DNA from: Cinnamomum chago
Taxonomy: Eukaryota; Streptophyta; Magnoliopsida; Laurales; Lauraceae
Reading direction: 5' to 3'
Assembly: GCA_038049695.1 (NCBI GenBank)
Contig: CP142451.1
Coordinates: 9,732,001 to 9,796,000 of the forward strand
Length of the DNA: 64,000 nucleotides
Part shown: positions 26,307-59,800 of the stretch, piece after piece
Numbering within the stretch: the stretch's first letter is position 1
How the letters are laid out: every line of letters begins with the position of its first letter
Position numbers and translations under genes: made by a program
Notes under the pieces: generated by a model
What the model saw: the letters and a program-made list of their open reading frames with translations, nothing else
Told to the model about the DNA's origin: nothing
The model's database searches: none

Positions 26307-28134
26307 TGTTAGGGATTTTGTAGATTGCAATTTGATGGATGCATAATCATTCAAGCATCATTTGATTTACACACTTGCATTGTTTTAGATAAACTTGAAA
26401 TCTTGTTTTAAATATGCATTGTTTTTAAGAGTTGTAAAAGTATTGATTTTTGCATGTTTTGTTTTTATCTTGGATGCATTTGTTTTTTAAAAGAGTTTTA
26501 GAAATCAAGCAAGCCTTTGGTTTTAAAGTTTCGAATCATTTTACGCTTTTTGTGTTTCATGTTTTTAAACATCTTAATTTGATTTAAAACATGTTTCCAA
26601 GCTTGATTTATTGGCCAAAAAATCCTCTCCAAGAAATACCTTCAAATGTGAAAAAATTAGGATTTTTGGTCCCAGGGGGTCAACCTGTCTGGCCGGGTCG
26701 ACCTGCCACACTGCAGGTTGACTGGGTCATGAAGCACTAATGGTCATTTTTCTGACCGTTGTGTGTAGCAGGTCGACCCCCCCTTTTGCCAGGTCGACCC
26801 GGGACTAGCCGTTGGACTGTTTTTTGGTATAAAGTCCATTCATTTCCAACCTTTTTGGGGGCTTGACAAATGAACTTTTGAGACCATTTTGGAGCCAAAG
26901 AAAGGGGAAGAAGTTGGAAAGGCTAGAGGGCTTTTTGGAAATCAAATGGTTGAGTTTTAAAAAGGTACATCTTACTTGTCATTTTGATTTCCATTAAAAT
27001 TAGAATCTATGCATGTTTAAATTTTGTATTTTCTTTTATGCATGATTTCTAGTTTTTAAAGAGTTGTTTTGCAAACTCATTATCATCTTTGGAATATTAA
27101 GAATGGTTTGCAAACTCTCTTGACTAATTCGCATGCTCTTAGACTTTAAATATTCATACAACTTGTTTAGTTCATTTCTTCAAAGTTGTTTGAATCTTTT
27201 ATGCAATTAGTTTTATCTTCAATCATTATTTTCTAAGCTTTGATTTTAAAATGCATCAAGCATTCATTTAGGAGCTTCATTGTAGAAATTGATTGAAGTA
27301 AAGCATTCATACACTTGTGCACACACTTTAGCTTGTTTTAGTGTATGTTTGTAATTTGTTATTCACTTTCATATTCGCCTATTTTAGAGGCAAATACATT
27401 GTGTTTAAATTGTATCTCTTAGAGTGATCTCTTGTGAAGACACTTTCTTAGAGAAATCTTTATTTGTAAAGGTTATTGTTTAGCCTAAGAAAAGCATTGT
27501 GTAAAGGTTATTGCTTAGCCTTGAAAAGCATCTTGTAAAGGTTGTTGTTGAGCCTAGTAAAAACAACATTGTAAGGGTTATTGCTTAGCCTATTGAAAAG
27601 CATAAATAGTGGAAATCCGGTGGGGTGATTAGATCACAAGCCGGTAGTGGACGTAGACATTGAGGCCGAACCACTATAAACCTTTGTGTTGTAGTACTTG
27701 CTTTTGTGGTGATTGTTTTTATTAGCTTCCGCATTTAGATTGTTTAATCATCACATGTGACTAGTTTATGTTAAGAAATTAAAACTTCTCTATATTGGTC
27801 ATATTTGTAGCACACCCTATTCACCCCCCCCCCCTCTAGGGTTAGGATCCCAGGACTTTCATGTGTGTGTGTAAATTCATGCGGGTCTTAGTCGGCCCAA
27901 ATGAAGGTTAATACTTGGCAGAATTGCATACACACCTGTGGTGGTAAACGTGTGACGATTATAAGGATTTTACATGTGAATAATAAGGCGATCCAAAGAT
28001 AGATTTATTATTTGACATGAATTATTGTCAATGTTTGATCACTACAACAAGATGACCATTTACAATTAATATTACTGTCCAAAGACTTGATATTAATGTT
28101 GTGCTAGGTACCTTGACACGAGACTTACCATTAT

Positions 28135-31100
28135 TTGAATTTGTTACTTCTGTATTTGGTTAATAATATGAGCATGTTTGTCTGTTTGTTTTTTGTTCTC
28201 TTTACAGCTAGTGTTTCTACTATATCTGCTAATATCAACCCTATACTTGTACTTAATGGGACCAACTTTAAGGATTGGAAAGAGAACATAGAAATTGTTC
28301 TCGGCTGCATGGATCTAGACCTTGCACTACGGATTGAGCAACCCGTTTCTCTTACGGATGCAAGTTCTCCTGATGACAAGAAGAACTTTGAGAAGTGGGA
28401 TCGCTCAAATCGCATGAGTCTTACTTTGGCTTGTTCTGAGGTAAATTTAGCTTCAGTACCTAGAAACACGTGGTGGTTGGATTCTGGTGCTACTACTCAC
28501 ATCAGTGTTTCTATGCAAGATTGCCTGAGCTACAGAAAGCCAAGTGATGTTGAAAGACACATCTTTGTGGGCGATGGAAAGTCGGTAGAAGTAGAGGCAA
28601 TAGAGTATTTTAGGTTGTTATTAAAAACTGGTTATTATTTGGATTTATTAGATACTTTTATTGTACCGTCTTTTCGACGGAATTTGGTTTCGGTTTCTTT
28701 ATTCGACAAGTTTGGTAATTTTTGTTCATTTGGAAACAATCAATTCAGTTTATCTATAAATTCAAATGTTGTTGGAACTGGTTCTCTATGTGTATATGAC
28801 AACTTATATTTGCTTGATACAATTGTTTCTTATAATAATGAATCCTTGCATGTGGAATCACGAGGTACTAAACGCAAAATGAATAAAGAAAACTCGTCTA
28901 CATTATGGCACAAACGCTTGGTCACATCTCTAAGTCCAGAGTTGAGCAACTTGTGTCTGATGGCATTTTAGATTCCCTTGACTTTACAGACTTTGATGTT
29001 TGTATTGCTTGCATCAAGGGAAAACAGACCAAAATGAAGAAATTAGGTGCCAATAGAACTACAGACGTCTTAGAATTGATACACACAGATATCTGTGGAC
29101 CATTCCCTACGGCTTCCTAGAATGGCCAACAATATTTCATATCATTCATAGACGATTACTCTCGCTATGGGTACCTATTTCTCATTCATGAGAAATCACA
29201 GTCATTGGACTTGTTCAAAACATTTAAAGCTAAAGTTGAGAACCAACTCAACAAAAGAATAAAGAGTGTCAGGTCTGACCGTGGTGGTGAATATTACGGC
29301 AGATATGACGGTTCAGGTGAACCACGTCCAGGACCATTTGCTAAATTCCTAGAGGAATGTGGAATCGTCCTACAATACACCATGCCAGGGTCACCTTGCA
29401 TGAATGATGTAGCTGAAAGACGAAACCAGACTCTTAAGGATATGGTAAGGAGTATGATTAGTCATTCCACTTTACCAGAGTCACTCTGGGGAGAAGCACT
29501 CAAAACAGCAGCTTATATTCTGAATAGAGTGCCAACTAAAGCAGCTGCAAAAACACCTTATGAGCTTTGGACAGGTAGAAAACCTAGTCTAAAACATTTT
29601 CAAATTTGGGGATGTCCTGCTGAGGCAATGCCTTACAGGTCATATGAAAAGAAATTGGACTCCAAAACTGTGAGCTGCTACTTCATTGGCTACTCTGAGC
29701 GATCTATGGGCTATAAGTTTTATGATCCCACACTTAGGTCAATTTTTGAGACGGGAACTGCAACATTTTTTGAGGATGTTGAGTTTGTGGGGAGAAATAA
29801 GGTTAGAGACATTATCTTTGAGGAAGAATCGGTTACGATTCCTACTATTGCTTTTGACAATGTGCAGGTTTCTATACTTGTCATTGATCAAGAAGCGAAT
29901 CCGGATCATCAACAAGATAATGTTGATCAACCCCCCATTCAAGATGAGGAACAAACTCAACAACCTCAAGAACCAGTGCCTTTAAGGCAGTCCACTAGAG
30001 AAATGAGAAATGCTATTCCGGACGATTTTTTCGTATTTCTCCAAGAACATGAGGAAGAAATTGGAATGGTGGAAAATGATCCAATCAACTTCCATCAAGC
30101 CATGCAAAGTTCTAACTCTCAAAAGTGGATTGATGCCATGAATGAGGAGTATAAGTCTATGCAAGACAATAAGGTTTGGGAACTTGTCCCATTACCAGAA
30201 GGTGCGAAGCCCATTGGTTGCAAATGGATTTTTAAAACCAAAAGGGATTCAAATGGTAAAGTGGAGAGGTATAAGGCTCGTCTTGTAGCTAAAGGCTTTA
30301 CCCAAAAGGAAGGGATTGACTTTAAAGAGACTTTCTCTCCGGTTTCATCGAAAGACTCTTTTAGGACAATCATAGCACTAGTTGCACATTTTGATCTTGA
30401 GCTTCGTCAAATGGATGTCAAAACAACATTTCTCAATGGTGACATTGACGAAACAATTTATATGGTGCAGCCAGAAAACTTTGAGTCGGGAGACCCAAAG
30501 AATATGGTCTGTAAATTGACAAAGTCCATTTATGGACTCAAGCAAGCTTCTCGTCAGTGGTATCACAAGTTTCATCAAGTGATTATCTCGTTTGGTTTTG
30601 AGACAAACGCTGTTGATAATTGTGTGTATCACAAATTCAGTGGGAGTAAGCACATATTCCTGGTTTTGTATGTTGATGACATATTGCTTGCCACAAATGA
30701 TATATGCATGTTGCATGAAATCAAGAGATTTCTATTAAAGAATTTTGAGATGAAAGATCTTGGTGACGCCTCTTTTGTATTAGGAATCCTGATACAACGA
30801 GATCGCTCTCGGAGTATTCTTGGATTATCATAAAGAAGCTATATTGATAAAGTGCTCAGAAGGTTTGGCATGCAGGACAACAAACCAGGTGACACCCCTG
30901 TCTCTAAGGGAGACAAGTTCAGTCTCAATCAATGCCCTAAAACTAACCTTGAAGTTAAGGAAATGCAGAAGATTCCTTATGCATAAGATGTAGGGAGTCT
31001 AATTTATGCTATGGTGTGTACGCGTCCGGATATTGCGTACATTGTTGGTATGTTAGGCAGATATTTAAGTAATCCAGGGATGGATTATTGGAAAGCAGCC

Positions 31101-36500: not shown

Positions 36501-39500
36501 TTCATATTGCTCTGTTTCTAAACACAACTATATATAGAACTCATACATTTGTTTACAAAATGACTCTTGACTCTCCAAATACAGTAACCTATAGTCAGTT
36601 ACATTCTCACCTATTAACTCATAACAGCGCACACACACATTACCACCCACTAACTCATTAACATCCATAACAGCACAAACAATAACACCCCACTAACACA
36701 TGACTCCTTGCTATGAATTTGTTTATTTTTCAACACCCCCTCTTAAACCAAATTCACTTCCAGAAAGCACTCCAATCATATCCTTCAATTTGTTGAAAAC
36801 ATCTGCTTTGAGAGGTTTTGTGAAAATATCAGCAACTTGTTCTTGAGTATTGACTGAGATTAGCTCAACCTCCTTGTTCTTCACATGCTCTCGAATGAAA
36901 TGAAAACGAGTATCAATGTGCTTACTCCTTTCATGCATCATAGGATTCTTTGCAAGTGCAATAGCAGACTTATTGTCAATATAGATTCTTGTTGGTTCTT
37001 CATGTTGAAGTTGAAGTTCATTGAGCAGCTTTCTTAACCAAATCGCATGACATACAGCAGTTGATGCAGCGACATATTCAGCTTCGCATGTAGAGAGAGT
37101 AACAATAGGCTGCTTCTTTGACAACCAAGTAAAAGTCATTTCTCCCAAGTAGAAAATAAAACCTGAAGTGCTCTTTCTATCATCCACATCTCCACCCCAA
37201 TCACTATCGGAATAACCTTCAAGATAAAAATCTCCATGAGAAGAATAAAACAACCCATGATTAATTGTACCTTTGATGTAACGAAGAATTCTCTTGGCCA
37301 CCTGCATATGTGAATATCTTGGTTCCTCCATATAACGGCTTATTAGCCCAACTCCATATAGTATATCTGGCCTGGTACAAGTTAAATAATGAAGACTTCC
37401 TACTAAGCTCTTGAAAATAGTAGGATCCTCTCTGTCTCCATCGCCATACTTTGTTAGTTTGAGTCCACACTCCACAGGTGTTGAAACCAGATTGCATCTA
37501 TCCATCTTGAACTTCTTGAGAATTTCTCTTGCATAACCTTCTTGTGTGATGAAAATTCCTTCATCCATCTGCTTCACTTCGATGCTGAGGAAATAAGACA
37601 TAAGACCAATGTCTGTCATTTCAAACTCTTGAACCATAGTGTCTTTGAACTCCTTGAACATGCTTGGATTGTTTCCTGTAAAAATCAAATCATCCACATA
37701 CAAGGAAACAAATAATACATCTCCATTGTTAAACTTTTTTGAAAAAACAGCATGTTCATATGGACATTTGACAAATCCATTCTCTTCAAGATACTGATTT
37801 ATTCTGCTGTTCCATGCCCGCGGAGCCTGCTTTAACCCATAAAGAGCTTTCTTTAATTTCAACACCTTGTCTTCACTACCAGCTTTGACAAACCCTTGAG
37901 GTTGTTCAACATAAACCTCTTCTTCAAGATATCCATTCAAAAATGCTGATTTGACATCCATTTGTGAAATTTTCCATTTGTTTAGTGCTGCTAGAGAAAT
38001 CAGCAATCTCTCCGTCTCAAGACGAGCAACAGGAGCAAAAACTTCATCATAATCTATTCCGGGTTTCTGGCTATAACCCTTTGCAACAAGTCTTGCCTTA
38101 TACCTTTCGATTTCCCCTGTAGCATTCTTCTTTACCTTGTACACCCATTTAACTCCAATGGCTTTTTGTCCTTCTGGAAGATCAACAAGCTCCCATGTTT
38201 TGTTCTTCTCAATTGACTGAATCTCCATATCCATAGCTTCTTTCCATTTTTTTTTCATGAACAACATCTTCAAACACTATGGCTTCACTGTCTGCAAGTA
38301 AACATAATAATGTTAGATCATCTTGTTCTTCTGTTACCTCATAAAGATCCTGTAGACTCCTCATGTCTCTTGGTCCCACACTTGAACTTGACTCTTCAAG
38401 ATATGTGAAGAATTTGGAGATTGTGAGCTTGATGCATCTTGATTTGGTGTCACTGGAGTTTGGGGAGAAGAAGGAGATTGTGGTTCTCGAACTCCTTGAT
38501 GTTCTCTTTCTTCATCATCAAATAAGGGAAAGAAATCATAAATTTCTTCTTCTGGAATATTCCAATCCCATGAAGCTTTCTCATCGAACTCCACATCTCT
38601 ACTTATTATCAACTTCTTCATAATGGGGTCATAGAGCTTGTAACCTTTTGTTCGTGCATCATAGCCAATAAAAACATATTTGGCACTTTTGTCATCAAGC
38701 TTTGATCTTTTCTGATCTGGCACATGTGCATAAGCTATGCTTCCGAAAACTCGCAGATGTGAAATACCTGGCTTGATTCCACTCCTTGCTTCAATTGGTG
38801 TTTTGTTCCACACATTTTTAGTTGGACAACGATTCAGCAAGTTTATAGCACAGTCGACTGCTTCAGCCCATAATTCTTTTGCCATCTTCTTGCTTTTCAA
38901 CATGCTTCGTGCCATGTTCATGGTGGTTCGATTTCTTCTTTCTGCAACACCGTTCTGCTGAGGTGTATATGAAGCTGTCAAAGGATGTCGAATTCCATTT
39001 TCTTCACAAAATTCTTCAAACTCATTTGATGTGAACTCGCCGCCTCTATCAGATCTTAGAGCCACAATTTCAAATCCACTTTCTTTCTCAACAAGTGCTT
39101 TAAACTTCTTAAAAGTTTTAAACACATCAGATTTCTCATTTAAAAAATACACCCATGTTTTTCTACTAAAATCATCAACAAATATTAAAAAATACCTGTT
39201 TTTACCAAACGACGTGGGAGTGATGGGACCGCACACATCAGTGTGGACTAGCTGCAGTGGGTTCTTGGCTCTGTTTGAGGCTTCTTGTGGAAAACTCTTT
39301 CTTGGATGCTTACCAAGCAAACACCCTTCACATAACTGTTCTGGATGATTAATCAAAGGTAATCCCTTCACCATTCTTTTATCGGAGAGCATCTTCAACC
39401 CACCAAAATTCAAGTGGCCATATCTCATATGCCACAGCCACGAAGTGTCTTTCACACATGCTTTGAAGGACTTCACAACATCATTCTGAATTTTCAAGTG

Positions 39501-42466
39501 AAACATTCGATTTCTTGACATAGCTACCTGGGCAATTAAATTTCCTTTATGGTCTCTTATTGAAAGCTTCCCATCTTTCATATGTATATCATAACCCTTT
39601 TCTAAGAGTTGTCCCAAGCTTAGAATATCACTCTTCATATCAGGTACATAATAAACATCAGAAATGAATTGATGATCGCCATTTTTCAATTGAATCAGAA
39701 TGTTACCTTTGCCTCTCACTGCAATTTTTGATCCATCTCCAAATGTGACATTGCCATGTACTGATTCATCAAGTTCTACGAACAAACCTTTCTTACCAGT
39801 CATGTGATTGCTCGCTGCAGTATCAAGATACCATTTACTTGACTCACTACCTCGTTCTCCATGGTAGGCAAGTAATACAGTGGAGTCAACCTCTGTTATC
39901 TTCTCAACAAAGTTAGCCTTCTCTTCATTATTTCCTTCGCTTCTGCATTCCGTCGAATAGTGACCAAATTTGTTGCAATTATAGCACTGAATATGAGCCT
40001 TACACTCCCACGCTTCATGCCCAAACTTATTACAGTTGTAACATTGCTTTTGCGATTTATCTCGAGGCCTTTGAAGATTTCCTCTGCCACGTCCTCTATT
40101 ATTATGCCCATCTTGCTTCTTTTCATCATAACTTGAGGTGTTAAAACCTCTTCCTCTTCCTCGTCCTCTGCCTCTTCGTTGACCACGTTCACGTCCTCTA
40201 CCTCTGTGATTGTGGTTGCTGGAGCCATCATGCTCTTTTGTTAATGACAGCTTTGATTGCATCACTTGCTCAAGAGATGATTCACGGTCCTTCTTTTTAA
40301 GAAGCCTTTCTTCATGTACCTTTAACGAACCCATCAGTTCATCGATTGCCATAGTATCCAAATCTTTGGACTCTTCTATAGCCACGACTATGTAGTCAAA
40401 CTTCGAATCAAGGGATCGAAGAATTTTCTCCACGACCCGCACATCTTCCATAGTTTCACCATTTCTTCTAAGTTTATTCACTACTGCTTGAACTCTTGAG
40501 AAGTAGTCATAAATTGGTTCTGATTCTTTCATATGCAGGGACTCAAACTCACTTCTAAGAGTTTGAAGACGCACCTTCTTCACCTTGTCTGCGCCTTTGA
40601 AGAAACTTTGAAGTGAATCCCACGCCTGCTTCGAGTTTGTGGAACTTGAAATCTTCTCAAAGGCAGACTCATCCACTGATTGATAGATGAGAAAAAGTGC
40701 CTTCTTATCTTTCTTTCTAGCATCTTTTAAAATTGTGATCTGATTCTGTGTCAGATTACCTTCATTTTCTGGTTCATCATAACCTTTTTCGATGATGTCC
40801 CATGCATCTTGAGATCCTAGCAATGCCTTCATTTGGATGCTCCAATTTTCATAGTTCTCCTTTGTGAGACGAGGAAGTTGAAATGGCACCATACCATTAG
40901 CCATTTTTCTTCACCGAAGCTCTGATACCACTCTGTTAGAAATAAAGGAGGAAGTATATATTATTACTGATAACTATTCTTCATATTGGTCTGTTTCTAA
41001 ACACAACTATTTATAGAACTCATACATTTGTTTACAAAATGACTCTTGACTCTCCAAATACAGTAACCTATAGTCAGTTACATTCTCACCTATTAACTCA
41101 TAACAGCACACACACATTACCACCCACTAACTCATTAACATCCATAACAGCACAAACAATAACACCCCACTAACACATGACTCCTTGCTATGAATTTGTT
41201 TATTTTTCAACAATGCCAACACTCTTATGGTCGAGTGGTGTCGGCACCCTAATTTCACACACATGCTCAAGATTCGAACTAGTAACCTAGCAAAAAAGAA
41301 AAAAGGATTTGAGAGTATGCACCAGTATCCAAGTAGTACCTTAAAGTTATATACAGCCATTTGGGCACTTTGACTGGACTCTGTGGATAGGTAGGGATGA
41401 CAACGGACCCTGTCAACTTCCCGATGGATCTGACTCAAAAGATTGGGTTTGGGCCCTAATGTGGATCCGTTCAGTTTTGGGTCCACATGAACCCATAAAG
41501 GAATCAAATAAGGTCCATGTTCATTTGGTGCATACCCAATTAATTAAATTTCCAGTGGAAATATATATATATGAGCCATTTTCTAGTTGGGCTTGATCCC
41601 AATCCATGTCATCGTCCTTGTTCGTCTTTGGATTGTTACAAAAGTTTTATGCTGGCTTTCAAGATACCTACATAACTCTCCTTCTTTATCTGGATTTCGC
41701 TCGGACAACAATGCAATCCTGTTTACTCAACTATTCAAAAGAACTGACCCTGAAAAAAAAAAAAAGTGAGATAGCATTTCCTGTAGTCCTCTCGCTAATA
41801 TATGGAGCCTCTTAACTATTTTATGTTTAGAAGGATATATTCTATAGATCAAAGCACCTCTAATTGATTTTGAAAGAAATACTATGACTAGATTAGCAAT
41901 GATCCTCCTGTCTCCTTCACAAAAACCAATCGCATATGATCTTTCCTTGGTTTTCTCCATTCAACATTGTTGTAATTGTAGAACAATGCAACAACTACCA
42001 CATCCCCTTCTATTCGTATGGTTTATTATTGTCATAATTTTTAACACAGGAGGAGCTGAGACAACAGACAACAGACTTTGGTTTATTGTTGATGTACGAG
42101 ACGTAGCTGAAGCATTGTTGTTGGTGTATGACAAGAAAGAAGCATCCGGGAGATACATTTGTGCATCACATCCAGTTCGAGTTCAGAGTTTGGTTGAGAA
42201 GTTGAAGACTAAGTATCCTTGTTATAATTACCCTAAAAAGTAGGTATCTTATAACTATATTAGAGAAGTTGATTATGGTTAGAGGGGTCTCAGTCTCTCA
42301 GATGCATTTATTTTTTCTTTTCTACAGTTACACAGAGGTGGATCAAGAATTAAAGCTTAGTTCAGAGAAATTGAAGAGGTTGGGATGGGAATGCAGGTCA
42401 TTAGAAGAGACCATTGTTGACAGTGTTGAATACTATCAAGAGGCTGGTATTTTGAACAAGGATTAG
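33526..42466 (+). CDS. Gene A: cinnamoyl-CoA-reductase-like SDR, six exons
   Basis: Extended short-chain reductase of the CCR/DFR-like group; such enzymes reduce carbonyl or CoA-ester substrates with NADPH in the cytosol. Exons: 33526-33640, 33749-33918, 34985-35170, 36051-36222, 42050-42239, 42328-42466, giving 323 codons with all phases consistent. Seen: nucleotide-binding TGAGGYVAS (residues 10-18), R36 after the second strand, SS at 125-126, and NWYCISK with Y163 and K167 as catalytic pair. Canonical lignin CCRs have NWYCYGK, so the substrate probably differs. The start ATG at 33526 matches gene B. Oddities: intron 2 begins with GC, and the exon 4 acceptor adds three residues before NWYC. 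Intron 4 holds a 4.8-kb Copia element. Expression is not known. Confidence 0.85.
33919..34984 (+). other. Intron 2 of gene A
   Basis: The 5' site is gcaaag (a GC donor) where gene B has gtggct; the 3' site is tgcag. It contains a block (~34180-34310) that reappears inverted at 42870-43015, suggesting a dispersed repeat. No coding sequence is seen. Confidence 0.65.
35171..36050 (+). other. Intron 3 of gene A
   Basis: 880 bp, non-coding; the last ~170 bp align with the exon-4-proximal part of gene B intron 3 (46182-46330). It lacks the MULE found in the equivalent intron of B. Confidence 0.65.
36455..41215 (-). mobile_element. Young Copia LTR retrotransposon (Tnt1-like), antisense in gene A intron 4
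   Basis: LTRs of 281 and 282 bp (36455-36735 and 40934-41215) start TGTTAGAAATAAAGG and end TTTTTCAACA. They differ at only about four positions. The duplication is ATGCC (36450-36454 and 41216-41220). On the minus strand the primer-binding site TGGTATCAGAGC (40930-40919) and a polypurine tract before 36735 are present. All Copia domains are retained, with two apparent frameshifts. It lies entirely in an intron, opposite to the host gene. Confidence 0.96.
36723..40904 (-). pseudogene. Copia gag-pol polyprotein with two frameshifts
   Basis: The first frame (40904-38361, 847 codons) has a UBN2-type gag start ([15 protein letters not shown]), two zinc knuckles ([14 protein letters not shown] and [14 protein letters not shown]), protease ([13 protein letters not shown]), pre-integrase and integrase ([22 protein letters not shown]). 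The second (38273-36723) has reverse transcriptase ([11 protein letters not shown]) and RNase H (ADIFTKPLK). Between them a third frame reads [10 protein letters not shown], so one indel lies near 38400 and another in an A run near 38250-38258. The last codons run through the polypurine tract into the LTR. If either indel is a sequencing error in a homopolymer, the element could be close to intact. Confidence 0.9.
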
Positions 42467-44803: not shown

Positions 44804-47800
44804 CTAATCCTTGTCCAAAATACCAGCCTCCCGATAGTATTCAACAGTGTCAAAAATGGTCTCATCTAATGACCTGCATTCCCAACCGAATCTCTTCAAT
44901 TTCTCTGAACATAGCTTTACTTCTTGATCCACCTCTATGTCACTGTAGAAAAGAAAATTAAATGGGTCTGAGAGATCGAGATCCCTTCAATCATAATCAA
45001 CTTCTCTAATTCGGTTATAGGGTACCTACTTCTTAGGATAGCTATAGTAAGGATACTTGCTCTTCAACTTTTCAACCATACTCTGAACTCGAAGTGGATG
45101 TGATGCACAAATGTATCTCCCAGATGCTCCTTTCTTGTCATACACCAACAGCAATGCTTCAGCTACATCTCGGACATCGACAATAACCCAAATTCTATCG
45201 TCTATTGTCTCTACTCCTCCTGTATTTGAACAAAAGAAGAAGAAGGGAATATGGTGGTTGTACTTGTCGTCTCTGTTCTACAATTCTAACAATCTTGAAT
45301 TGATAATGGCATGCATTCAATTTTGGCGAAGGAGACTTGAGGATCATTGCTAATATAGTCATGGTATTTACTTCAAAATCAATTAGAAGTCTCTTAGATC
45401 TGAATAATTTATCCTTCTAAACAGATGACAGTTAAGATACTCAATACATTACCTAGAGGAATAGAGGGACTCCCAACTTAATTGTGAAACAGGAGTTGAT
45501 ACTCTCTGATTTTTTTGGGATCCAGTTCTTTCAAATAGTTGGGTAAACACATCCACAATCTATCATCTTTATCAGAAAGATTGGGCCCAAGCACAACTGA
45601 AAAATGACTCATATATCCATTTGGGAATTCAAGTGGGTATGCACCAAATGACCATGGACCTTATTTGATTACAGTAGGGGTTCATTCATGTGGACCCAAA
45701 ACTGAACAGATCCACATAAGGACCCAAGCCAAATCTTTTAAATTCAAATCCTTCCGGGAGTTGACAGGGTCCATTGTCATCCCTGGTCATTGTCCATCCA
45801 GTGTCCCAATCAAACATGGCCCCCTCTTATGTATACTGTATACAGCTTTAAGGTCCCACTTGGATACTTGTTCATATTTGTGCACGTGCATGTGTGTGTA
45901 CACATTCTCTTTTTCATCGAAAGCCTAGTGTTCCTAAGCATAGAACAACTAGGACGGTGTTCAAAGCATGAATTAGAGGTAAGAGGATTGTTTCTTTGAC
46001 AGAAGGAAATACCTTTAAATAGCTCAATGAAAAGTTGGCTGCTGGAATTCACGGTGGGTTGCAGCAGTGGTCCCAAAATCCGAGATGGACAAACCGTTAC
46101 AACGTCAAGCCCACTTTTCTCTGAGTACTTCAACGCCTCTCTTTCTGATGCTGTCTTGGAAATACAGTACCAGTTGTACCACTACTTACAATATGAAATT
46201 GGAGTGCAAGTCAACAAGTACTTAGAATTCCAAACAACAGTTCAAAAAAAAAAAAAAAAAAACACATTTATCCAAAAGAAACACCTACATTTCTTGCATC
46301 ATGTTGCATTTGTTTAATACCCTTTACAATGCTGTGTTTGCATTTAGTATGTAAACAAACTTAAAGTCACTTGTAACAGTGAGATGTTTGAGTATAGCTA
46401 CATTAGGTTACTATCTCGTTAGATAATTAGAGGAGTGAGAAGTGTAGCGAATAAAAGGAATAGTGGATTTGTAATATTTGAAGGGTTTTTTTTTTTTTTT
46501 TTTCATGCTAGTACATGATATTTGAAGCTTGAACCATTGCCACAAGTTTCTTTCTTGGATATTAATAATGCAGTATTTCTTTTCCTTTTTTTTTAGTGAT
46601 ATAATTTAGTGCTAAATGGAAACTTCAATTTGTTTTGTTTTTCTTGAGTTAACAATGGTAAATACATTGGAAGTAACTAAAAGAAGAAGATTTATTTAAG
46701 AGGAATTTACCAAATAAATCCCTGTAGGTCCCTATACCACTCATGGGGTCCAAAAAAAATAGTATTATTGGATTAGGTCCTCAAGGGCTGTATTTGTATT
46801 TTTTTTTGTATTTTGGCTATATGGCCGATATCGGCCATTGACAGTTAACCCCCTCACGCGCTGTGGCCCCTTTTTCTTTTCGTTCGACCATCACTTCCCC
46901 CATTCCCTTTCGTTTCTCGCTGTCAACAGTCTCCCCCTTTCCAGTGGTCCCAAGCAGGTGGTCCCAAGCATTTTGGCGCCAATTTTTCGAAGGTGGCTGG
47001 CATGGAGGTACGTTTCTTCCTCATTTCAACCCTTTTTCTTTGTGCCTTGGATTTTGAATGAAGACGTGTTGTTCTAGGGTTTGGTTTGATGGCTCTATTA
47101 TTCTCTACTTCTTCTCCTCATCTTCCCATCTTCTTCTCATCTTCATTACCCATTGTGCAGACGTGATATCTAGATTTCCAACTTTCAATTTGACATATTG
47201 AATTGTATATGGCCGATATCGGCTATATTTTATAAATCTCCCCCAACTGAGGCAGTTTATGAATAGCTTCTTCCCTGTTGATGCGCGTGACCTGTAGAAT
47301 AATGAAGTTGTCATTGAATCTATTGTGACGCACAAATCGATTATTAAAGACCATTTCTAAGTTCCAGAAAGATATAAGCATCAAGTAAAATGATTAAAAG
47401 CTTACAATTATGAATAAATATGAAGTAAGAGTCACAATCAGTTTGAATGCTTTAAGCACTATAATTGTTATTGTTCCATTAGGTCTGGACCAGTGTAACA
47501 TACCTTCTGTTGAGGGTATGTTTATGAATTAAAGGGGTGTTTCTTCCCCTATTATAACATCCAAGAGAAATTGTACAGGGGATGTCTTGATCAATATGCA
47601 AATAAAGAAGGCTGGGTATTTTAATGTCCCATTGCCTAAAATTACACTTTTAGTAGTAACCACAAAGATTGTTCATAATAGTTTCTTCAGAAAAAGCATC
47701 TCAATTCCTGAAATGTTGGATTCTGAACATTTCATTCTTTATAGTTATCACATAGTTAGTGAGAACAGAGTACAGAATGTTATGTTATTAAGAAGGATTA

Positions 47801-50800
47801 AGAACTTATGAACCATTGGCACTTATTGTTTCATCCATAAATTCCATTGAATGAAGGAGCTAAACTGTAAGTGAACTTCTAAAGGATGTTTACCTCTGGT
47901 GAGTCAACACTTGATGTTCTCATTCCTGGTGTCAGCTGTGATGGTTGTTATGCTAGTAAGCTTAGTATTGAATAATATCATGAGTAATTCATTCTACTGA
48001 TTGATACACAACAAAAAACCATGATGTTAACTGGCAAATGGCCACTCCTAAAAATCAGAACATCGTAATCTGTTATCAAAGTATGTATCAGAAGTTTTCT
48101 CCTACACAATCACCTGCATATAGTTCCATAGACCACATTGTGGGGGCCCAACTGGATACATGGGTGTAGGAATTAGGGGGATAGGAAGGTCTGCGGTAGG
48201 AGTAGGAATCCTCAAATAATATCAACCTAATGAGTTCATTATATATAAAGATTGAAAGCCAAACAGGAGTGTCTCAACACAAGGGAAAGACACAAATATG
48301 AAATTATAGCCGATATCGGTCATAACAGGTCATGTATAACTATCGCCGATATCGGTCATAATTTCAAACTCAGGCTCCCTTAACTGAGGCTATAAAAAAA
48401 CAGGTCATGTATTAACACAACCGATATCGGTCATAATATTGACTGATATCGGCCAAAAATTCAGCCTCAGGCACCCTTAACTGAGGCTATAAGAGAACAG
48501 GTCATGTACAGAACGGCCGATATCGGTTGTAATGTTGACCGATATCGGCCAAAAATTAGACTCAGGCACCCTTAACTGAGACACAAATATAAATCTATCC
48601 TATTCATCAACCAGCGCCAGAATCAAAGCTCTCTAAGCTAAAGTACAACAGTAAAAGCAAAAGAAAAACTCAAGCAACTCGAAGAAAAAAAAAAACCCAA
48701 TAAAAGAAAAATAGAAGTCAAACCAAGCAAGCATAGACATAAATGGAAGAATTCTCCTTACATTGTCTCAAAATGAACCAAACCCACAGATTTCCATACT
48801 CAATACATCAATTGGAATCACCAAAAGAGCGAGGAAAAAAAAAAGTAGGAAGTATGAAATATAGAGAGGAGCATGTGGGGGGGTGGGGGAAGAAAACAAA
48901 ATTCAGGAGGCCATGTGCATTAGGATGGGGGGGTGGAAAGAGAAATCTGAGGAAAAATGGGATTCGTTTTTCCTTGGTATTTTATTTATAGTGGTTGGGT
49001 TTTTGAAAGCCTCCGTCAAAATTTGTCAGACTCATCAGTCATCTCTCTCTCTCTTTCTCTCTCTTCCTGGCTTGTAAAGAGAAGACAAAGCGATGTATGA
49101 GCTTTTTTAAAATGATAATTGGTCGCGGAAACTACTGTATTCCACAGGTTTATGTGATACAATTTTTGTGACTGTCTTCCACTTTTGTTTGGTTGTTTAT
49201 TTTAGTGTTCTTTTACTTATTCTGTCTTAGTATAAGGATTTATGACTTCATCAATGTACATGATCAGTGTCCTATTTAGAGTCTCACATGGTAGAGGGTG
49301 GAATCTTGAATAGCGTTTGATATTCTTTTGTAGGGTGAAGGACAAGCCCCCAAGTCTCCGAAGGTTCTACTATACAACCAAAGCCTTCACGTGTCGGAGG
49401 GAATTCGGCAAGGAGAGGTATACTGTATTACACGAAATCAATTACACATTTCAAAGTATCGATGCAAATTGTTATTTGATATATTCGTTTTGTACTTGCT
49501 AACCACATTTGGTAATTGTTACGTTGCTAGGATTTTGGACGGCTGAGATGCATACCAACCAATCCGGACCGAAACATATGGCAGCTAACAAAACAACAAA
49601 AGGCATACGTGAGGCAGACGGGCCTCCATTACTTAGCAGAAATCAATCGCATGGTCATTGATCATGCGCTAATAACCGGTCTAGTCGAAAGGTGGCGCCC
49701 GGAGACAAATACTTTCCACTTTCCGTCGGGTGAAGCAACTGTCACCCTGGAAGATGTTGCATACATCTACGGCCTACCCGTAGATGGCCCACCTGTAGCT
49801 GGACGAACTTTCCCGGGGAAGTTCGTCGCGTCGGTGTGCGAGGAGGTACTTGGCATTCGACCGGATAAGCGTGACTACCATGGTATAACAGTGAAGTTCA
49901 AGTGGCTTGAAGACAATTTTGCAGCTGCCGAACTTGAGAAAAAAAAGAAGCATAAAAAATACAAGGATTACGAGATCCGAGCAACGCGAGCCTATCTCTT
50001 CTTTCTAGTGTCCGGTCAGATCGTTTCGCAGACTACTGGTGCCCGTGGACCGGCCTACATACTAGAGCTGTTCAAAGAATTTAAACCGTATGCATGGGCA
50101 CCGGCTTGTCTCGCGAATCTGTATAGGATGTTGACCAATGCCTCTCGATGGGGTCCGGAGAAGTTAGTTGCTGTGGAAGAGGGGAAAGATAAGCAAGGTG
50201 AGCTTGAAGGGCACCTGTGCAGGACGCCAACCGGGCCTCTACAGCTATTACAGGTCTTTATTCTCATAGTGACTGTTAGTTTGAATTTTTTATTTAATTC
50301 GAACTAACTCTTTATTGTGATGTAATCTGGTGCAGATATGGGCTTATACAAGGATGTCAATCGGAAGGTGTCCTAAGCCAAAAGAATCGTGGCAGGGGGA
50401 CATACAATTCCCACTGTGCAAGACATGGATGAAGAGGTTGCCTGAAAATCCACCACTCACCTCAGTCAAGGAAGTGAGATGACAGTTAAACAATTTGAAA
50501 GTTGACGAGGTAAAACAAGAAATTGACTAGCTCCTTAGTTCGGTGTTCGATTATATGCATTCTATTTTGCTGAGATACTGGACTAACTGTTTCGTTGCTG
50601 ATGTGTATTGCAGTTCATATGGCAACCATATGAAGGGTTTAGCCCAAAGTTTTTTTCAAAAGTATCTAAAGTGGATCGCACTCTCCTACATTCGTCCACT
50701 GTTTTGATATGGTATTGGATTGTCGAGCGCCACAACACTTGGCGTGTTATGAAACAATTCGGGCTCAAACAAATAGTCCCACCGCCTTTTACAATGCCGA

Positions 50801-53800
50801 TCTTAAGACGAGAAAGGACATTCAGGTCTGTTGTCGATTATGCGGCAACGATGGATAAGGATGTCGTGTCGACGTGGAGAGCAAGAGCCACTCTTGGACT
50901 TCAAGGTGAGGCTTGTGCTGCAGCTGCGCAGTCCGAAGAGTACATGGAATGGTATACGAAGAATACGTTGATGTTTATTGGTAGAGGAGAGGCAACAGAG
51001 CAGCCTGCGTCCCATGTCCCTGCATCTGATGTCCCCACGGCTGAGGTGCTTGCAGAGGAGACCCGCACTGAGGATGAGCCCACCATCCCACAGAAGCATG
51101 TATATCAATTACACCCTATAATGGACTGTTACACTAGTTCCTTGATTTTTTTTTTCAAACTGTCGCTAATTCAATTACTTCTTTGATCAACAGGCTCAAG
51201 ACATGGTCACACGCATTGAACGGAGCCTCGAACGTTCTGCACGCAGGAAAACGCCAATCGACAAGCTATCCATGTCAATTTCGAAAAAGCTAGCTAAGTT
51301 TAAGTCGGGTTTTGGGACGAATTGGGAGAACTTCTCCTTCAATGGATGCAGTAGCTCGGCGTCTGATAATGACGCCACGGAGAAGAAAATCTTGATCACA
51401 TTTAAGCATACCAAGAGGCCTGCGCAAAAAAGCCCGGCTAAAAAGACTAAATCTGCTAAAAGAAAATTCACGGTCGAGGAACCGAACCTCGTGAGCATAA
51501 ATGCCGAGGGATCAGGTAGCAGCAGGGAACAGCCCACGACTGAGCCAGCACCCCGGGAAATTGTTCAGACCCCACCAGTCAGCAGGATTTTGTTTGCATC
51601 CCCATTAACGGTCTCCAGTGAATCTGCTATGGTGGTTGCAGCGCCATTGGCCACCCTTGAGTCATTGGTATGGAGGATGAAACGGTTGCCCCGAATGCGT
51701 AAGATACCGTTGAAGTTTGAAGACTACACGCATGATATCGTTCGGAGCGACTATGTGCTGTCTGAATCCGACAAATTCTTCCTCAAAGGTTTTCTAGAAT
51801 ACTACGATGACAGGTATGTTGGTTTAGTGTTGATCATGTTAATTTGTTTGATTGAAGTGCTTACGTGTGTTTGGAGATATTCACTGTTACAGGAAAGATG
51901 AGCTTGATGATGTTTGCACATTGATCAAGGTAGATGATTTGAAGAATGTCCTTGATGAGGGAACTTGGATGGACACTAACATCATTTATTATTACTTTGA
52001 GATATTGAGAATTGGGTGTGATTCATGCTTCATTGCCGACCCGAGTGTCTGTGTAAGTACAAACTAAACAATGGTTGGGTAAATCCTTTATTATATGTAT
52101 ATTGGAACATTGTACCCACATTGATCAATTCAATGTATGCAGAGTTGGTGGCGCGATAGTGGTGACACAGCCATCGAGGCAGTCTTTGGGAAGTACGGGC
52201 ACAGGGTGTTGGACGCGAGGGAAGCGCGAACGCTGATATTCATTGTCTATCAGAGGTCACATTTCACATTATTGGTCGGACTGGTTGATGAGAAGAGATG
52301 GGAGTTTTACAATAGCATGGAGGGCGATCGCCGATCATTTAAACATGCATCGAAGTTTGTAAGTTTTTCTTCCTTCATGCCAAGAGTCAGTTTATCTCGA
52401 ACGCGTATTTCAAATTCTTCTGTCCATTGCTGACATTTAGACCCGATGTTTTATGTAAATGGGATGGTTGGCCGAATGGTATAGCCATTTTGGGTGGAGC
52501 GACCCATTTCTATGGCCACTAGTTGAAAAGACGGACATCCCTCGACAGAACAATACGAGTGATTGTGGAGTATTTGCAATGGCCTTTGCCACTCACTGTG
52601 TCCACCGGCTTCCCATCGCCTTTACGCAATCAGACATGCGTTACTTTCGAAGCAAAATAGTCGTGGAAATCTTCAAACGGAGTTGGCAATTGAACGCTAA
52701 TAGACTGGGCTTGACCCACTTGGCATCACTCCCATGAAGAATATGATCATCCGGGAACTTTGAAAGTGGATTAGCCTGCATGTTATCAAATGTGAATCAC
52801 TGAACTTCATAACTCAGATTGTATAGAAAGATTGGTGGTTGTGGTGTTCATTTTCATTTGTATAGAATTTGACATTCAAAATGTTCTAAATGGGTTGTAT
52901 TTAGACAGGCTGTATAGAATTTTCATTTGTATAGAATTTCATGGTTGTCTGTGTTTCTTGATGTCGATTAGTTGAAAACAGGCTGACTGCAGGCTTGTCT
53001 GTGTTTCTTGATGTTCTAAATGGGTTGTATTTAGACAGGCTGTTTCTTGATGACCGATATCGGCCATCATTACATGCACATTTCCCCTTAACTGGGGCTA
53101 TAAAAAACAGGTAATGTATTACTACAGCCGATATCGGTCATAATACATACCGATATCGGCCAAAATTACATACCCAGGCTCCCTTAACTGTGGCTTTAAA
53201 AAAACAGGACATGTACAGAATGGCCGATATCGGTCATAATATCAACCGATATCGGCCAACATATCAGTCTCAGGCACCCTTAACTGAGAGTATAAAAAAA
53301 CAGACATCTACAGAATGGCCGATATCGGTCATAATATCGACCGCTATCGGCCAAAATATCAGTCTCAGGCACCCTTAACTGTGGCTTTAAAAAAACAGGA
53401 CATGTACAGAATGGCCGATATCGGTCATAATATCGACCGATATCGGCCAACATATCAGTCTCAGGCACCCTTAACTGAGAGTATAAAAAAACAGACATCT
53501 ACAGAATGGCCGATATCGGTCATAATATCGACCGATATCGGCCAAAATATCAGTCTCAGGTACCCTTAACTGAGAGTATAAAAAAACAGACATCTACAGA
53601 ATGACCGATATCGGTCATAATATCGACCAATATCGGCCGTTCTGTACATGTCCTGTTTTTTTATAGTCCCAGTTAAGGGTGCCTGAGCCTGATATTTCGG
53701 CCGATATCGGTTGATATTATGACCGATATCGGCCATTCTGTACATGTCCTGTTTTTTTATACTCTCAATTAAGGGTGCCTGAGACTGATATTTTGGCCGA

Positions 53801-56800
53801 TATCGGTCGTTATTATGACCGATATCGGCCATTCTGTACATGTCCTGTTTTTTTATACTCTCAGTTAAGGGTGCCTGAGACTGATATTTTGGCCGATATC
53901 GGTCGATATTATGACCGATATCGTCTATTCTGTTAATGCATGACCTGTTTTTTTCAGCCTCAGTTAATGGAGCCTGGGTATACTGCTACTGTGGCGAACT
54001 CAATGGAGTCAGCTATAGCGATCCTGCTACTGTGAAAAAATATGCTAGACGTGCCCAATTGGGTGAAATTTTTGAATTAGATCGTGCTACTTTGAAAATT
54101 TTGAATTAGCTCATTCACTCGAAGAGTTTCAACAAGCAGATACAGATTCGATGTTCACATAAAGCGTGCACAATTAAAAAAGGATCACATATCATTTATG
54201 AAATACAGTAATACAGGACTCCCAAAATACACAATTACAAACACATTTGCATACATCTAGGCATCATCAATGGAAGTGTATGCATCATCAAAGTACTCGC
54301 CACGCAGTTGCAGCACCTGTTGTTACAGGAACTGGGAGTGTCGTGGTATGCGTACTGTGATGAAATAAAAACTCCCATGATTAATACATCCTAAGGACAG
54401 CTATCTGTATACATCATTAAGGGTCTTCTTCAAAAAACTGCAACCAGAATACATGCCAAAATGAATATACATTCTATGCGGTTCTAATTCGTCAACTGAG
54501 CACGGGAGGATTGCGACAACTTCCACGGTTGTGGCCTCTCCCCTTGCAATTTGAGCACGTTATTGCCCTTCGAACACGGCCAATATCTTCAGTCCGAATC
54601 CTGTTCTTTTTCGGGCGTCCGGGCTGTTTACTGGACATTGGTGGAATAACTCTCAATTCGGCTGTGTGCTCCCATTGCTTGCTGTCACGGGTAGCATGAA
54701 TCACTTCACTGTACGTTGTACGATACGTGCTCGCAAAATACCAATGCTCACAGAATTCGTATGGATCGTAGTTTCTCATTTTCATTGCAGCCAATGCATG
54801 GCAACACGGGATACCCAATATCTCCCATTTCCGGCATGTGCAGGATTTCCGTTCGAGATCAACAACGTCAACATACTCCGCAGACTGAACCTGAAATTCT
54901 ACGATGCCAGCCACACGAACATGCAATCGGCGAGCTTCATCCATTTCTTGACTGAGAACTTTCTCCGCATACGGGGTAAGACGAGTTGTTATGCTTTCAA
55001 ACTGAAGATGCCGCTTTTGATAGAAGTCCATTAACTTTGCTCGTATCTCCTCAATTTGTTTCGTAATGGGCAGGACTCGCGTGTCTTTTAGGAGATTATT
55101 AGTGCACTCGGCTGCATTGCTAGTTAGCATGTCGTACCGACGGCCTTCTATGTATGCATTTGCCCACCGTTGCCGCCCAATTGCATCAATGTAATTGAAA
55201 ACCTCCTGGCTAACTGCACGGATATCTGTCATATAAGCCTCGTACTCGCATCGTCTGTATGACGTTGCTGCACGCCAAAATTTCATCACGATTGCCCCGT
55301 CACTGAAAGCAGCTTTGATGTTCTCAGCAATGTGACGGCAGCAGTAACAGTGCATTGCATGCGGTATGGTGTTCTTCAACGCTGGAATGAGACCCTTCTG
55401 CCGGTCTGAAACAATAGTAAGGTTAGTTCGCTCTCTTAGAGATATGGACAAGTTCGCAAGGAACCACTCCCAGCTATCGCGCCGCTCGGCTTCGGCAAAG
55501 CCAAAGGCGATGGGAAGTAGCTTATGGTTGGCATCATGCGTCACGGCAACAAGCAACACACCTGGATACTTGCCTCGGAGGTGTGAACCGTCTACAGCAA
55601 TCACTGGTCTCAACGAAGACGTGTAAGATCTTATGCACGGTCCGAACGCCCAAAAAAATCTTCTGAAACGGTCATCCGAAGTGGTGTCTATGTTTGTCAC
55701 AGTGCCAGGGTTAGTCAACTCAAGTTCCTTACAATAACGGGGTAGCAGCTGGAAGGACTCTTCATATGATCCTCGCACAATACAAAGTGCCATCTCCTTT
55801 GCTATATAAGCCTTTCTGTAACTAATTATTGAACCAAACTCCATCTGATAGTCATTCATGATCTCCTTCGGTTTCAAATTCACATTCTGCCTGACCCGTT
55901 CCATGATGAACTCTCTAATAAGCGCCGAGGTTGCCTGTTGATGTGCCATGCCCATCAGTGGCTTTGAGCATCGATGGTTAGGATTGTACGTCCTAACTTT
56001 AAATTGTGATCCTGATTCGACAATCGAAGCATGAATACGCCATGGACAATCCTGATCTTTGCATCGTGCAGTCACTTTGGTCATGTTGGTCTTCAAATGT
56101 TTAAGAGTGAAGTTACCGTATATTGCAAACTTCGCCAACGTATTCCGGAACATCTGTCGATCAGGAAAAACACGGCCAATCCACATCTCTCGTGCGGAGT
56201 TGTTGCCAAATTCCATTTTCATGTCATCGGGCTCAATTTTATCATCAAAATCAACTTTTGGAATTTCATTAGACCGTAGATCGGTAGTGGTTTGATTGAC
56301 TTCATCCCTGCAACTTTCGGCCTTGAAGATTGGTTTTGAATGAAGCTCTCCATTAGAGGTATGTCGGTTAAAATGGATATCATCAGCACGCATCATCCCA
56401 AGGTCGATATGACCATCTAACGCCTCATTGCATACATCATCATCATCTCGCACAGATGGATATTGCATGTCTGTGTCATCGCGGAGATCAGCGGTGGGTT
56501 GTTCTCGAGGACTTGTTGATAACTTCACTTGTTCCCTCTTCAAACTGGCTGACGACCTCCTTGGCATTTTTGGACTCTTAAATCCTACTGCGGTCCTTCG
56601 TAACCTACAATGAATCGGGGCATAAATAAGCAAGTGCTAACATAAATAATTAATTTCGCATTTAAAATTTAGTGAGACAATTAGTAGGCATACCTGTCCT
56701 CTCCCCTTATACTTTCATTGTTGTTCGGACTATTAGAGACGTACAAGTATATCTCATTCGTTTCATTTCCGGATGCTTTGAACATAAGACGAACATCATT

Positions 56801-59800
56801 ATCATCGTCAATGCTAGCCATTGAGAATGCCCGTCCGTTGTGATGAAGGTATTGCATGCTTAAATTCTGGATGGCTGTATCCCAATTGGATGATTCCATT
56901 GCTTCGTTAGCCAGGCATTGATAAGAGATGTCTGACGATAAATATTTCATTTTTTGTTTTCCTCCACTGTACACCGGACGGCTGATGTCAAATTGAAAGT
57001 CGCCGTCATAGTGGAATATGAACAACACCTCTCTGTCTGACATGCTATCATTAAATCACAGGAAAATTATGAAGATATCAGTAAAATGTAGGCAGATTCA
57101 GGATGACAATTACAACAGATCGGTATTAGACCCATTTCATTTGTCCCTAGCTGCTATTCAAAAAATATTTAGACCGTATCCCACCTATTCTCCTATTGTT
57201 CATCAATCAGCAAGATAACCAACTCCAATTGGATGAGATACTGGCGTTGAAGTATCCATGTTTGCAAGATCAATATAGAACAATATACAAACATACAAAC
57301 TAGACAATAACATTTATGGATTTACTGATGTACACTAAACATAAATAAAATGGAATGCACGACCCACCATAGCTCCAGCTGCTGGATTGAACAGAACCCT
57401 GAAAACGACTACACAGAATGTTTCAAAATGACGCTCTCTCAAACAGTTCTAGGGTATTCATGATGAGTGTGGATTTTCGACAGTTCTAGGGTTAACAAGA
57501 ATGAAATAAAGGAGAATGGGTACTCTATTGATGTTTCAAAATGACGCTCTCTCAAACAGTTCTAGGGTATTCATGATGAGTATGGATTTTCGACAGTTCT
57601 AGGGTTAACATGAATGAAATAAAGGAGAATGGGTACTCTATTGATGAAAGTGGGTTTTTTACATACCCTTCAAACAGAAAGTTCTTCTATAAGCATTAAA
57701 GAAAGCCTGGTTTAGAGACCGGGTACTCTAATGATGACAGAGGATTTTACAGAGATCTAGGGTTAACAAGAATGCATTAATGGAGATAAATCAATGTTAC
57801 GATGTCACATTAGAGAAGATAGTGCATTAAGATGTGTCTTTAATGTACAAACCTACCTCTTAATGAAGTCCAACAACCGATTCACAGAAGTTTTTTTACA
57901 TGATTTCTGAAAGGAAAAAAATCGTCATACAACAGTCGAGGAGAGGAATAAGGATGTCGCATAAATGAGAGTTGTGAGCAAAACACACTCGGGACGAGAG
58001 AAATAGGGATGTCGCATAACGGCCAATATTACTGCCGATATCGGCCATAGAGCCAAAATACAAAAAAAAATATAAATACAGACCTTGAGGACCTAATCCG
58101 ATAATACGGTTTTCTTGGGACCCCATGAGTGGTATAGGGACCTACAGGGATTTATTTGGTAAATTCCTCTTTATTTAAAGATATATCTCAAAGGCTAAAG
58201 AGATATTTAAATCCAAAATACATGAAATTTAATCAAGTATTGCAGAAATAACAAAATATTATTGCTTACAGAGATCTTCATTTATTGAAATATCTTCAAG
58301 CTATTTTTGTTCTGATAATAATAATACAGTACTACCACACCTTATTGGATACAATGGTGTGAACCAATGTTTTAAACCAGACTGCACAGGCCAGGGATCG
58401 GCCCAAATCATTCACTCCAATGGTCCTCCCTCCAATCTGGTTTTTCAAATCTTGATGTGGACAACTTACATATCAGCATTTCTTGGTGAAGAGATCAGAA
58501 GAGTAAATCAATAAACTACGGTTGCTAATGAGATGGGCTGTTAGGAAAACCCCGGATCGGGCTGAGCCCAATCTGCATGGACCATGTATGGTTCACCTTT
58601 AAGACTTACTGACTGGGCATGAGCTTGAGATTTTGAAACTGATTTCTTAAGGCCCAAGTGGATGGCTAGTTCAGGTACCACTTGTGTGATCTGAATGTGG
58701 CCCAAGCCAAATGCAGGCAGGTTGTCATCCTATCAGGTGTAAGACACTGGATAGGCACACCTAGGCCATGCCAATTTAGTTTTTGGGCTGGAAAGCCCCA
58801 ATTCCTCCCAAACTATAGTCCTTTAGCCTCAACAAAAATCCATACCACCTCTGGGTTGGACTAGGCCCAACGCATTAATGACCCCTCATCTATGGTCACC
58901 ATACAGAGAATGAGAGAACCAACTGCGCAATGATCCAGTTCATCATTTGGTTTGGGTCCTTGAACTGGTTGAATATTTAATTTAACTACGGCTAACCTCA
59001 TTTACCCATAATTGGATATCACAAAGAAAAACAACTGTCACTTTATGGCTATTCTTTTTTATTGGTTACCTGCATTTGATTTGAGAAGATCCATTCCGAT
59101 CCTAGCTGATCATTATTTGGTTGTACATTTTGGGCCGTCACCCTACTTTTCCTGCAATAGTCGATGTCGCTCCAACAATCCTCATCCATGGGTCTATTTG
59201 GTGGCCAGTTTGGGTTATTCACAACAGCAGCAGTAGATGAGACAATGACTACTCGTTCCACTCCTGTCTCAGAACATGCCTTAAGTACATTGAGAGTGCC
59301 CCTAACAGCAGTCTCCAGCACTTCGGTCTGCATTACAATGAGCAAAGTTTTGGAATCTGCTTCAAAGTTCATGACCCCTTGTTGGAGTAGATGAATGGTT
59401 CAGTACAAATCAATTCAACACCACTAACTATTTAAAGCCCAACCATGATGTCAACAAAAGAAAACCCAAAAGCTTAAGCTAATAGGTGGAAGGCCTATAC
59501 AGCTTAAGTTAATAGGTGGAATGCCTATACAGATATATTAAGACATGTCAAGTATATTACTTAGGCGATGTGGGACTTTCCAACACTCCTCCTCACGTGA
59601 AGGTCCAACAGATTTCATGGACGAACCTGTCACGTGGGCTACACAAGAACAACGGGATCGGAACCCGCTCTGATGCCATGTAATAAACCATATACCAACC
59701 CAAAAGCTTAAGCTAATAGGTGGAAGGCCTATACAGATATATTAAAACATTTCAAGCCTATTACTTAGGTGATGTGGGACCTCCCAACAAGGTAGTCCAG

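What the first reader, a model, noticed from the sequence alone, without database searches (positions are those of the whole stretch)
46700..58169. MULE with a self-specific palindrome array and a PMD-C48 gene: candidate anti-silencing system
Seen: 24 exact and 4 one-mismatch copies of CCGATATCGG, all inside this element: in both terminal repeats, upstream of the PMD-C48 gene and between the two genes; none noticed elsewhere in the window. Known: Arabidopsis VANDAL MULEs encode VANC proteins that bind short motif arrays in their own non-coding DNA and remove methylation, and VANDAL accessory proteins can carry C48/DUF1985 parts. Inference: here a plant mobile domain/C48 protein, or the transposase, may read CCGATATCGG as an element-specific address. 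A plant mobile domain in that role would be new.
Basis: partly seen in the sequence, partly recalled or inferred. Interest (0 to 1): 0.88.

Follow-up and report, generated by a model that had tools for sequence, protein, structure and literature searches.

The report
Jumping gene with self-address palindromes
A plant jumping gene and its cousins each carry their own version of a short palindromic DNA tag, repeated in their ends and non-coding parts, together with a protein whose predicted shape resembles a known transposon protein that finds its own DNA, which suggests that each cousin marks itself to escape silencing.

The parts
46700..58169 (.). complete MULE, family A
   Evidence: TIRs, 9-bp target duplication, MULE transposase
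46691..46699 (+). left target site duplication TTTATTTAA
58170..58178 (+). right target site duplication TTTATTTAA
46700..46834 (+). left TIR; palindrome 46825-46834 at its inner edge
   Evidence: core 126 bp from the left end in 6 of 6 family-A copies read there (this one included)
58035..58169 (-). right TIR; palindrome 58035-58044 at its inner edge
47213..47222 (.). single palindrome in intron 1 of the PMD-C48 gene
48310..48548 (.). intron-1 array, 5 exact and 1 one-mismatch sites; seen in 5 of 30 family-A loci read there (this one included)
53054..53976 (.). main array between the convergent 3' ends: 16 exact and 3 one-mismatch sites, 95-96-bp units with sites 22 and about 74 bp apart, partly inverted
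47002..52737 (+). PMD-C48 gene: exons 47002-47007, 49334-49417, 49531-50253, 50336-50509, 50614-51099, 51194-51813, 51893-52052, 52143-52358 and a C48 exon near 52459-52737 whose junction is unresolved
   Evidence: splice sites read from sequence, no transcript data; PMD PF10536; Peptidase_C48 PF02902
50480..50482 (+). nonsense codon in this copy's PMD gene
   Evidence: absent at that place in L017-L045 (29 of 29) and L054
54492..56633 (-). MULE transposase main exon (DBD_Tnp_Mut, MULE, SWIM)
56681..57043 (-). probable N-terminal transposase exon, no Pfam match

Best explanation
The palindromes are an element-specific address. The element's own PMD-C48 protein, most likely as a dimer, binds them in both TIRs (the promoter ends of the two genes), in intron 1 and in the intergenic array. 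There it counteracts DNA methylation and silencing of the element, much as VANC proteins do for VANDAL elements; the C48 part may remove SUMO from silencing factors. Lineages switch address by changing both half-sites around a fixed CGATATCG core while the protein changes with them. Shown: the address, its placement, its switch between lineages, purifying selection on PMD, and a predicted PMD fold like that of DNA-bound VANC21. Inferred: who binds, dimer binding, loss of methylation, the C48 role.
Against: No binding or methylation data. The model is of a 39%-identical Cinnamomum homologue with overall mean pLDDT 61.5. Sequence identity to 9lnj is 10%, 9lnj is the only row shown that covers the PMD part, and Foldseek itself did not list it at E<=10. 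Motif and proteins are linked by descent, so only about three lineages count as independent, and the data do not separate PMD from transposase. Sites at a fixed distance from the ends also fit a transposase. A degraded relative (C11:32064610) has no CGATATCG in the 10.5 kb read. With all 65 array units the motif-to-spacer contrast falls to 10% against 20%. This copy's PMD gene has a nonsense codon.
Confidence: 0.62

Rival explanations
1. The transposase reads the palindrome. It marks the TIR binding site for transposition, and the internal arrays titrate transposase or guide regulation, as subterminal arrays do for TnpA of En/Spm (recalled).
For: Core 126 bp from the left end in 6 of 6 family-A copies, and at the same inner TIR edge in B and C. 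MULE transposases bind TIRs (established knowledge). The first 150 transposase residues diverge (24-46% identity between A and B, C or E in 50-residue bins, 34-50% for G).
Against: Residues 150-199, in the transposase DNA-binding domain, are 76-80% identical between lineages whose motif flanks differ. Internal arrays in an intron (1.6 kb from the left end) and between gene 3' ends (4.2-7.3 kb from the ends) are not needed for cutting. The PMD fold offers a more specific reader.
Confidence: 0.22
2. A host transcription factor binds the palindrome and drives the two genes.
For: Sites sit in the promoter ends of both genes.
Against: A host site should be shared by lineages and by host genes, but flanks differ by lineage and 50 of 50 listed 16-mer places fall in this family. 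The main array is at the 3' ends of both genes.
Confidence: 0.07
3. Neutral tandem-repeat expansion of one early site, with no function.
For: Most sites are in 95-96-bp tandem units that vary in number and orientation between copies.
Against: In 52 internal units motif columns vary about 17-fold less than others, though only 2-fold less if all 65 units are taken. Lineages with saturated dS keep the core at the same places. The base next to the core is symmetric in 187 of 193 sites, and one mixed half-site is rare. TIR sites lie outside the units.
Confidence: 0.04
4. The palindromes act as RNA hairpins or transcription terminators between the convergent genes.
For: Self-complementary sites between convergent 3' ends; symmetric changes would keep pairing.
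Against: The core is kept as exact CGATATCG, which pairing alone would not require, and sites also lie in TIRs and intron 1. Not tested by folding.
Confidence: 0.05

Closest known systems
VANC anti-silencing proteins of VANDAL elements (VANC21, VANC6; PMC5735166: section 5 part 1, sections 9 and 10 read)
   Same: TE-encoded protein; short motifs in tandem repeats in introns, intergenic and terminal non-coding DNA; motif differs between related TEs; predicted PMD fold matches VANC21 (9lnj)
   Different: PMD in place of DUF1985; 16-bp palindromes in place of YAGTATTAY; long TIRs; binding and loss of methylation shown for VANC, not here
KIU (Kaonashi), Ulp1-carrying VANC genes in MULEs (PMC13317346, passages seen)
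   Same: MULE gene with a C48/Ulp1 domain beside a transposase gene
   Different: here joined to a plant mobile domain, in a TIR MULE
PMD-carrying plant MULEs (PMC6446971 and PMC5418596, passages seen)
   Same: PMD gene antisense to the transposase gene is listed for several plant MULE groups; anti-silencing speculated in 2017
   Different: no cis address described in the passages that I saw
MAIN/MAIL1/PP7L of Arabidopsis and the DOWN motif CATGCAGTTT (PMC7156037, PMC9899485, passages seen)
   Same: PMD proteins tied to a short DNA motif in promoters; direct recognition proposed, not shown
   Different: host silencing or activation factors; motif unrelated
TnpA of En/Spm (recalled)
   Same: element protein that reads its own motif array and counteracts methylation
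   Different: CACTA element; subterminal arrays only

Membership tests
Mutator-like element | MULE transposase with Mutator DNA-binding and SWIM domains | tested here: met
   all above curated cut-offs
Mutator-like element | long TIRs and a target duplication of about 9 bp | tested here: met
VANDAL / VANC | DUF1985 domain in the accessory protein | tested here: not met
   no DUF1985 hit in window pieces (at E<=0.001, at E<=1) or P0022-P0024 at E<=10; PMD instead
VANDAL / VANC | no or short TIRs | tested here: not met
   TIR about 135 bp, 92% complementary; the VANDAL group is listed with TIRs of 46-174 bp in some members (passage), so this feature is weak
VANC-like sequence-specific address | short motif arrays in the element's own non-coding DNA, variable as tandem repeats between copies | tested here: met
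VANC-like sequence-specific address | motif differs between related elements in step with the encoded protein | tested here: met
   about three lineages, linked by descent
VANC-like sequence-specific address | accessory protein shares the VANC21 fold | tested here: met
VANC-like sequence-specific address | protein binds the motif and lowers methylation of its own copies | not testable with these tools
   needs DAP-seq or gel shift and bisulfite data
Ulp1/C48 protease | C48 domain with catalytic His and Cys | tested here: met
   PF02902; HFTL, FYNS and DCG kept in A and E, FYNS and DCG in the part of C read; Asn at the usual Asp place (recalled comparison); activity untested

The most novel reading that the evidence does not exclude
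The plant mobile domain is a DNA-reading domain of the same fold as VANC. MULEs use it, with a C48 protease, as a sequence-specific anti-silencing factor whose palindromic address switches by symmetric half-site changes; host MAIN/MAIL proteins would then belong to the same class of DNA readers.
Probability: 0.5. Interest if true: 0.93.

Novelty: new variant of a known kind. Interest (0 to 1): 0.86.

Why it matters
As far as I know, sequence-specific anti-silencing is worked out in detail only for VANDAL elements of Arabidopsis and its kin. Here a different TE lineage in another plant group shows the same logic with a different domain by sequence but, by prediction, the same fold. It gives a function to test for the plant mobile domain, whose molecular role is unknown although host PMD proteins act in silencing. 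It also offers several natural protein-address pairs for working out the recognition code.

Tried and rejected
Structure of the window's PMD exon from 9 sequences: pLDDT 35, discarded. Sequence search of PDB with the PMD profile: 14 matches up to E 10, best E 0.6, none of them VANC21. Foldseek on the Cinnamomum model: 24 rows at E<=10, best E 0.35, SENP/Ulp1 chains and unrelated ones, no 9lnj. Tandem arrays of 195 bp (L046) and 185 bp (L052) in the intron-1 place of other subfamilies: no CGATATCG in those loci. CCGATCGATCGG, 4 copies in L066, was first taken for a lineage motif; it lies upstream of that element's C48 exon, probably in an intron, and the same element has TAGTCGATATCGACTA in its intergenic region. 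C1:3956612 first looked like a chimeric subfamily; it is a decayed family-A copy with a stretch in intron 1 that reads like a Copia polyprotein (no family search run) and a split PMD exon. Searches by DNA (the TIR; the array unit) did not complete, so non-autonomous copies were not counted. Literature: searches gave no paper with these palindromes or the VANC21 structure. One search had 121 hits for the bare letters, of which 15 were listed, and I saw none relevant among those 15. The library lacks most subscription papers, so the work behind 9lnj was not seen and may already note a link to PMD.

Rows dropped: 13 of 65 array units (more than 4 mismatches in a motif place, mostly at array edges) were left out of the 0.9% against 15% figure; this choice favours the motif. 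With all 65 the figures are 10% against 20%, p 0.01. Subfamily classes rest on identity and match range (150 scored of 2901 candidates), not on a tree; transposase copies are 63 scored of 4142 candidates.

Full report
WHAT IS THERE. The window holds a complete Mutator-like element, 46700-58169, with TIRs of about 135 bp and a perfect 9-bp target duplication TTTATTTAA. It has two convergent genes. The first, on the + strand, has a plant mobile domain (PF10536, E 3e-43 for the first piece) and a C48/Ulp1 domain (PF02902). Its start ATGGAG|GTACGT lies at 47002, about 170 bp inside the left TIR motif, and is the same in 6 of 6 family-A copies read there, this one included; intron 1 runs to 49333. 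The second, on the - strand, is a MULE transposase with DBD_Tnp_Mut, MULE and SWIM domains. The gene model is read from sequence alone, and the final C48 exon junction is unresolved. In this copy the first gene has a nonsense codon at 50480 (codon 320 of the 823-codon model), which is not present at that place in L017-L045 (29 of 29) or L054. Three of the 29 have other stops in the PMD exon.

THE MOTIF. CCGATATCGG is present 24 times exactly and 4 times with one mismatch, all in the element. Sites lie in both TIRs, exactly 125 bp from each end, in intron 1 (47213; 48310-48548) and in an array between the two gene 3' ends (53054-53924). The core CGATATCG is absent from the modelled coding sequence (0 of 25). 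In the main array the unit is 95-96 bp with two sites 22 bp apart. Across 52 internal units from seven array sources (two of them in the window) the 20 motif columns vary by 0.9% on average and 78 other columns by 15%. With the 13 edge or poor units included the figures are 10% and 20%.

FAMILY A IN THE GENOME. The genome is 1.06 Gb in 14 contigs. 63 transposase copies at 93-100% identity were scored, of 4142 candidates; 56 of 63 have a convergent PMD within 9 kb, and one more (C1:3964624) has a split PMD exon. In 30 copies (435 pairs) the PMD exon has mean dN 0.0042 and dS 0.042, ratio 0.10. The intron-1 array is polymorphic: 5 of 30 loci have it. In contrast the intergenic array was present in 4 of 4 further subtypes fetched (16 to 23 exact sites in each 1.8-kb stretch) and in L054, with unit number and orientation changing. 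The left TIR site is 126 bp from the end in 6 of 6; four of these six have a second site 44 bp further in.

THE DECISIVE TEST: SISTER LINEAGES. Related PMD-C48 MULEs (PMD exon 72-78% identical; dS against family A 1.2 or more, or beyond estimate) have other palindromes at the same places. Lineage C (C6:20505134): TAGTCGATATCGACTA at both TIR inner edges (the right one with a changed flank) and 9 core sites 22, 44 or 45 bp apart between the genes. Its relatives at C1:99389414 and C2:34357048 have the same motif, and C1:12400171 and C1:28369756 show it at TIR and array distances. Lineage B (C3:38429966 and others): TTGTCGATATCGACAA in TIRs, and a decayed intergenic array of about 98-bp units in two copies (L075, L079). 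Genome-wide: TGRCCGATATCGGYCA 659, TAGTCGATATCGACTA 1201, TTGTCGATATCGACAA 162; reversed controls 0, 0, 0. About 0.4 would be expected by composition for each of the B and C 16-mers at an assumed GC of 0.37. All 50 listed A 16-mer places, of 659, fall in family-A copies. The mixed half-site TAGTCGATATCGGCCA occurs 4 times; other mixtures were not counted. Pairs of cores 20-23 bp apart occur 1185 times, the reversed control 147. That listing also revealed a fourth class, TTGCGATATCGCAA, 386 places against 1, whose elements I could not read. The base next to the core is symmetric in 187 of 193 sites in 27 chosen sequences, most of the sites family A; the second base out is symmetric in only 83 of 193, being R or Y in family A. 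On contigs C1 and C2 the B motif lies within 16 kb of 6 of 7 B-like PMD hits, 0 of 20 A, 0 of 12 C/D and 1 of 4 other.

RESULTS AGAINST. The G element (C11:32064610) is decayed, with stops in its transposase, and shows no CGATATCG in 10.5 kb read with a gap. The 80%-identical relative at C10:56748190 shows none in the 4.2 kb read, though one mixed site lies at C10:56754500. One of 7 B-like PMD hits has no exact B site nearby. The 10-mer alone has a large genomic background.

MECHANISM. Shown: address, placement, lineage switch, purifying selection, predicted VANC-like fold. Inferred: PMD-C48 binds as a dimer to TIR, intron and intergenic sites and opposes methylation; C48 may cut SUMO. Each palindrome holds CG and, in family A, CCG (CHG) sites, so methylation could itself gate binding (inference from sequence).

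KNOWN AND NEW. PMD genes, often antisense to the transposase, are listed for several plant MULE groups (PMC6446971, passages). Capture of genic PMD-C by MULEs and a speculated anti-silencing role are in print (PMC5418596, passages). Ulp1-carrying VANC genes (KIU) are described (PMC13317346, passages). Host PMD proteins were linked to a promoter motif, CATGCAGTTT (PMC7156037, PMC9899485, passages). I found no paper with these palindromes, their lineage switch, or a PMD-VANC fold link. The paper behind 9lnj was not found in the library.

HOST. The closest named transposase and PMD-C48 homologues are from Cinnamomum (62% transposase; PMD-C48 proteins, 31-51%) and Persea (PMD protein, 58%), so the host is probably a Laurales relative (inference).

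Noticed in passing
G000:C1:11514540-11514596, 24430934-24437567, 87105537-87113433: Fourth palindrome class TTGCGATATCGCAA, 386 places against 1 in the reversed control; at some places clusters lie 5-8 kb apart as if at both ends of an element; elements not read.
   Followed up: partly
L046:1408-2537 and L052 (minus strand) 1326-2455: Large 195-bp and 185-bp tandem arrays in the intron-1 place of other PMD-MULE subfamilies, without CGATATCG.
   Followed up: partly
L066:1452-1565: Four CCGATCGATCGG palindromes 21-42 bp apart, probably in an intron of a PMD-C48 gene.
   Followed up: no
window 57418-57646: Two 98%-matching 113-bp tandem units near the start of the transposase gene.
   Followed up: no
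window 21989-22129 and 27464-27604; 28135-30833: Tandem stretches with the same repeat values 5475 bp apart, perhaps in the LTRs of an element, and Copia-type polymerase domains downstream.
   Followed up: no
window 36723-40904 (-): Copia-type retrotransposon with gag, integrase and reverse transcriptase in two long frames.
   Followed up: no
window 13254-13554: 63-bp unit, 4.8 copies, with a GC-rich inverted stretch.
   Followed up: no
window 52143-52734, L065, L066+L067: C48 part keeps Asn (FYNS) where Ulp1 proteases usually have Asp (comparison recalled), in three lineages.
   Followed up: partly
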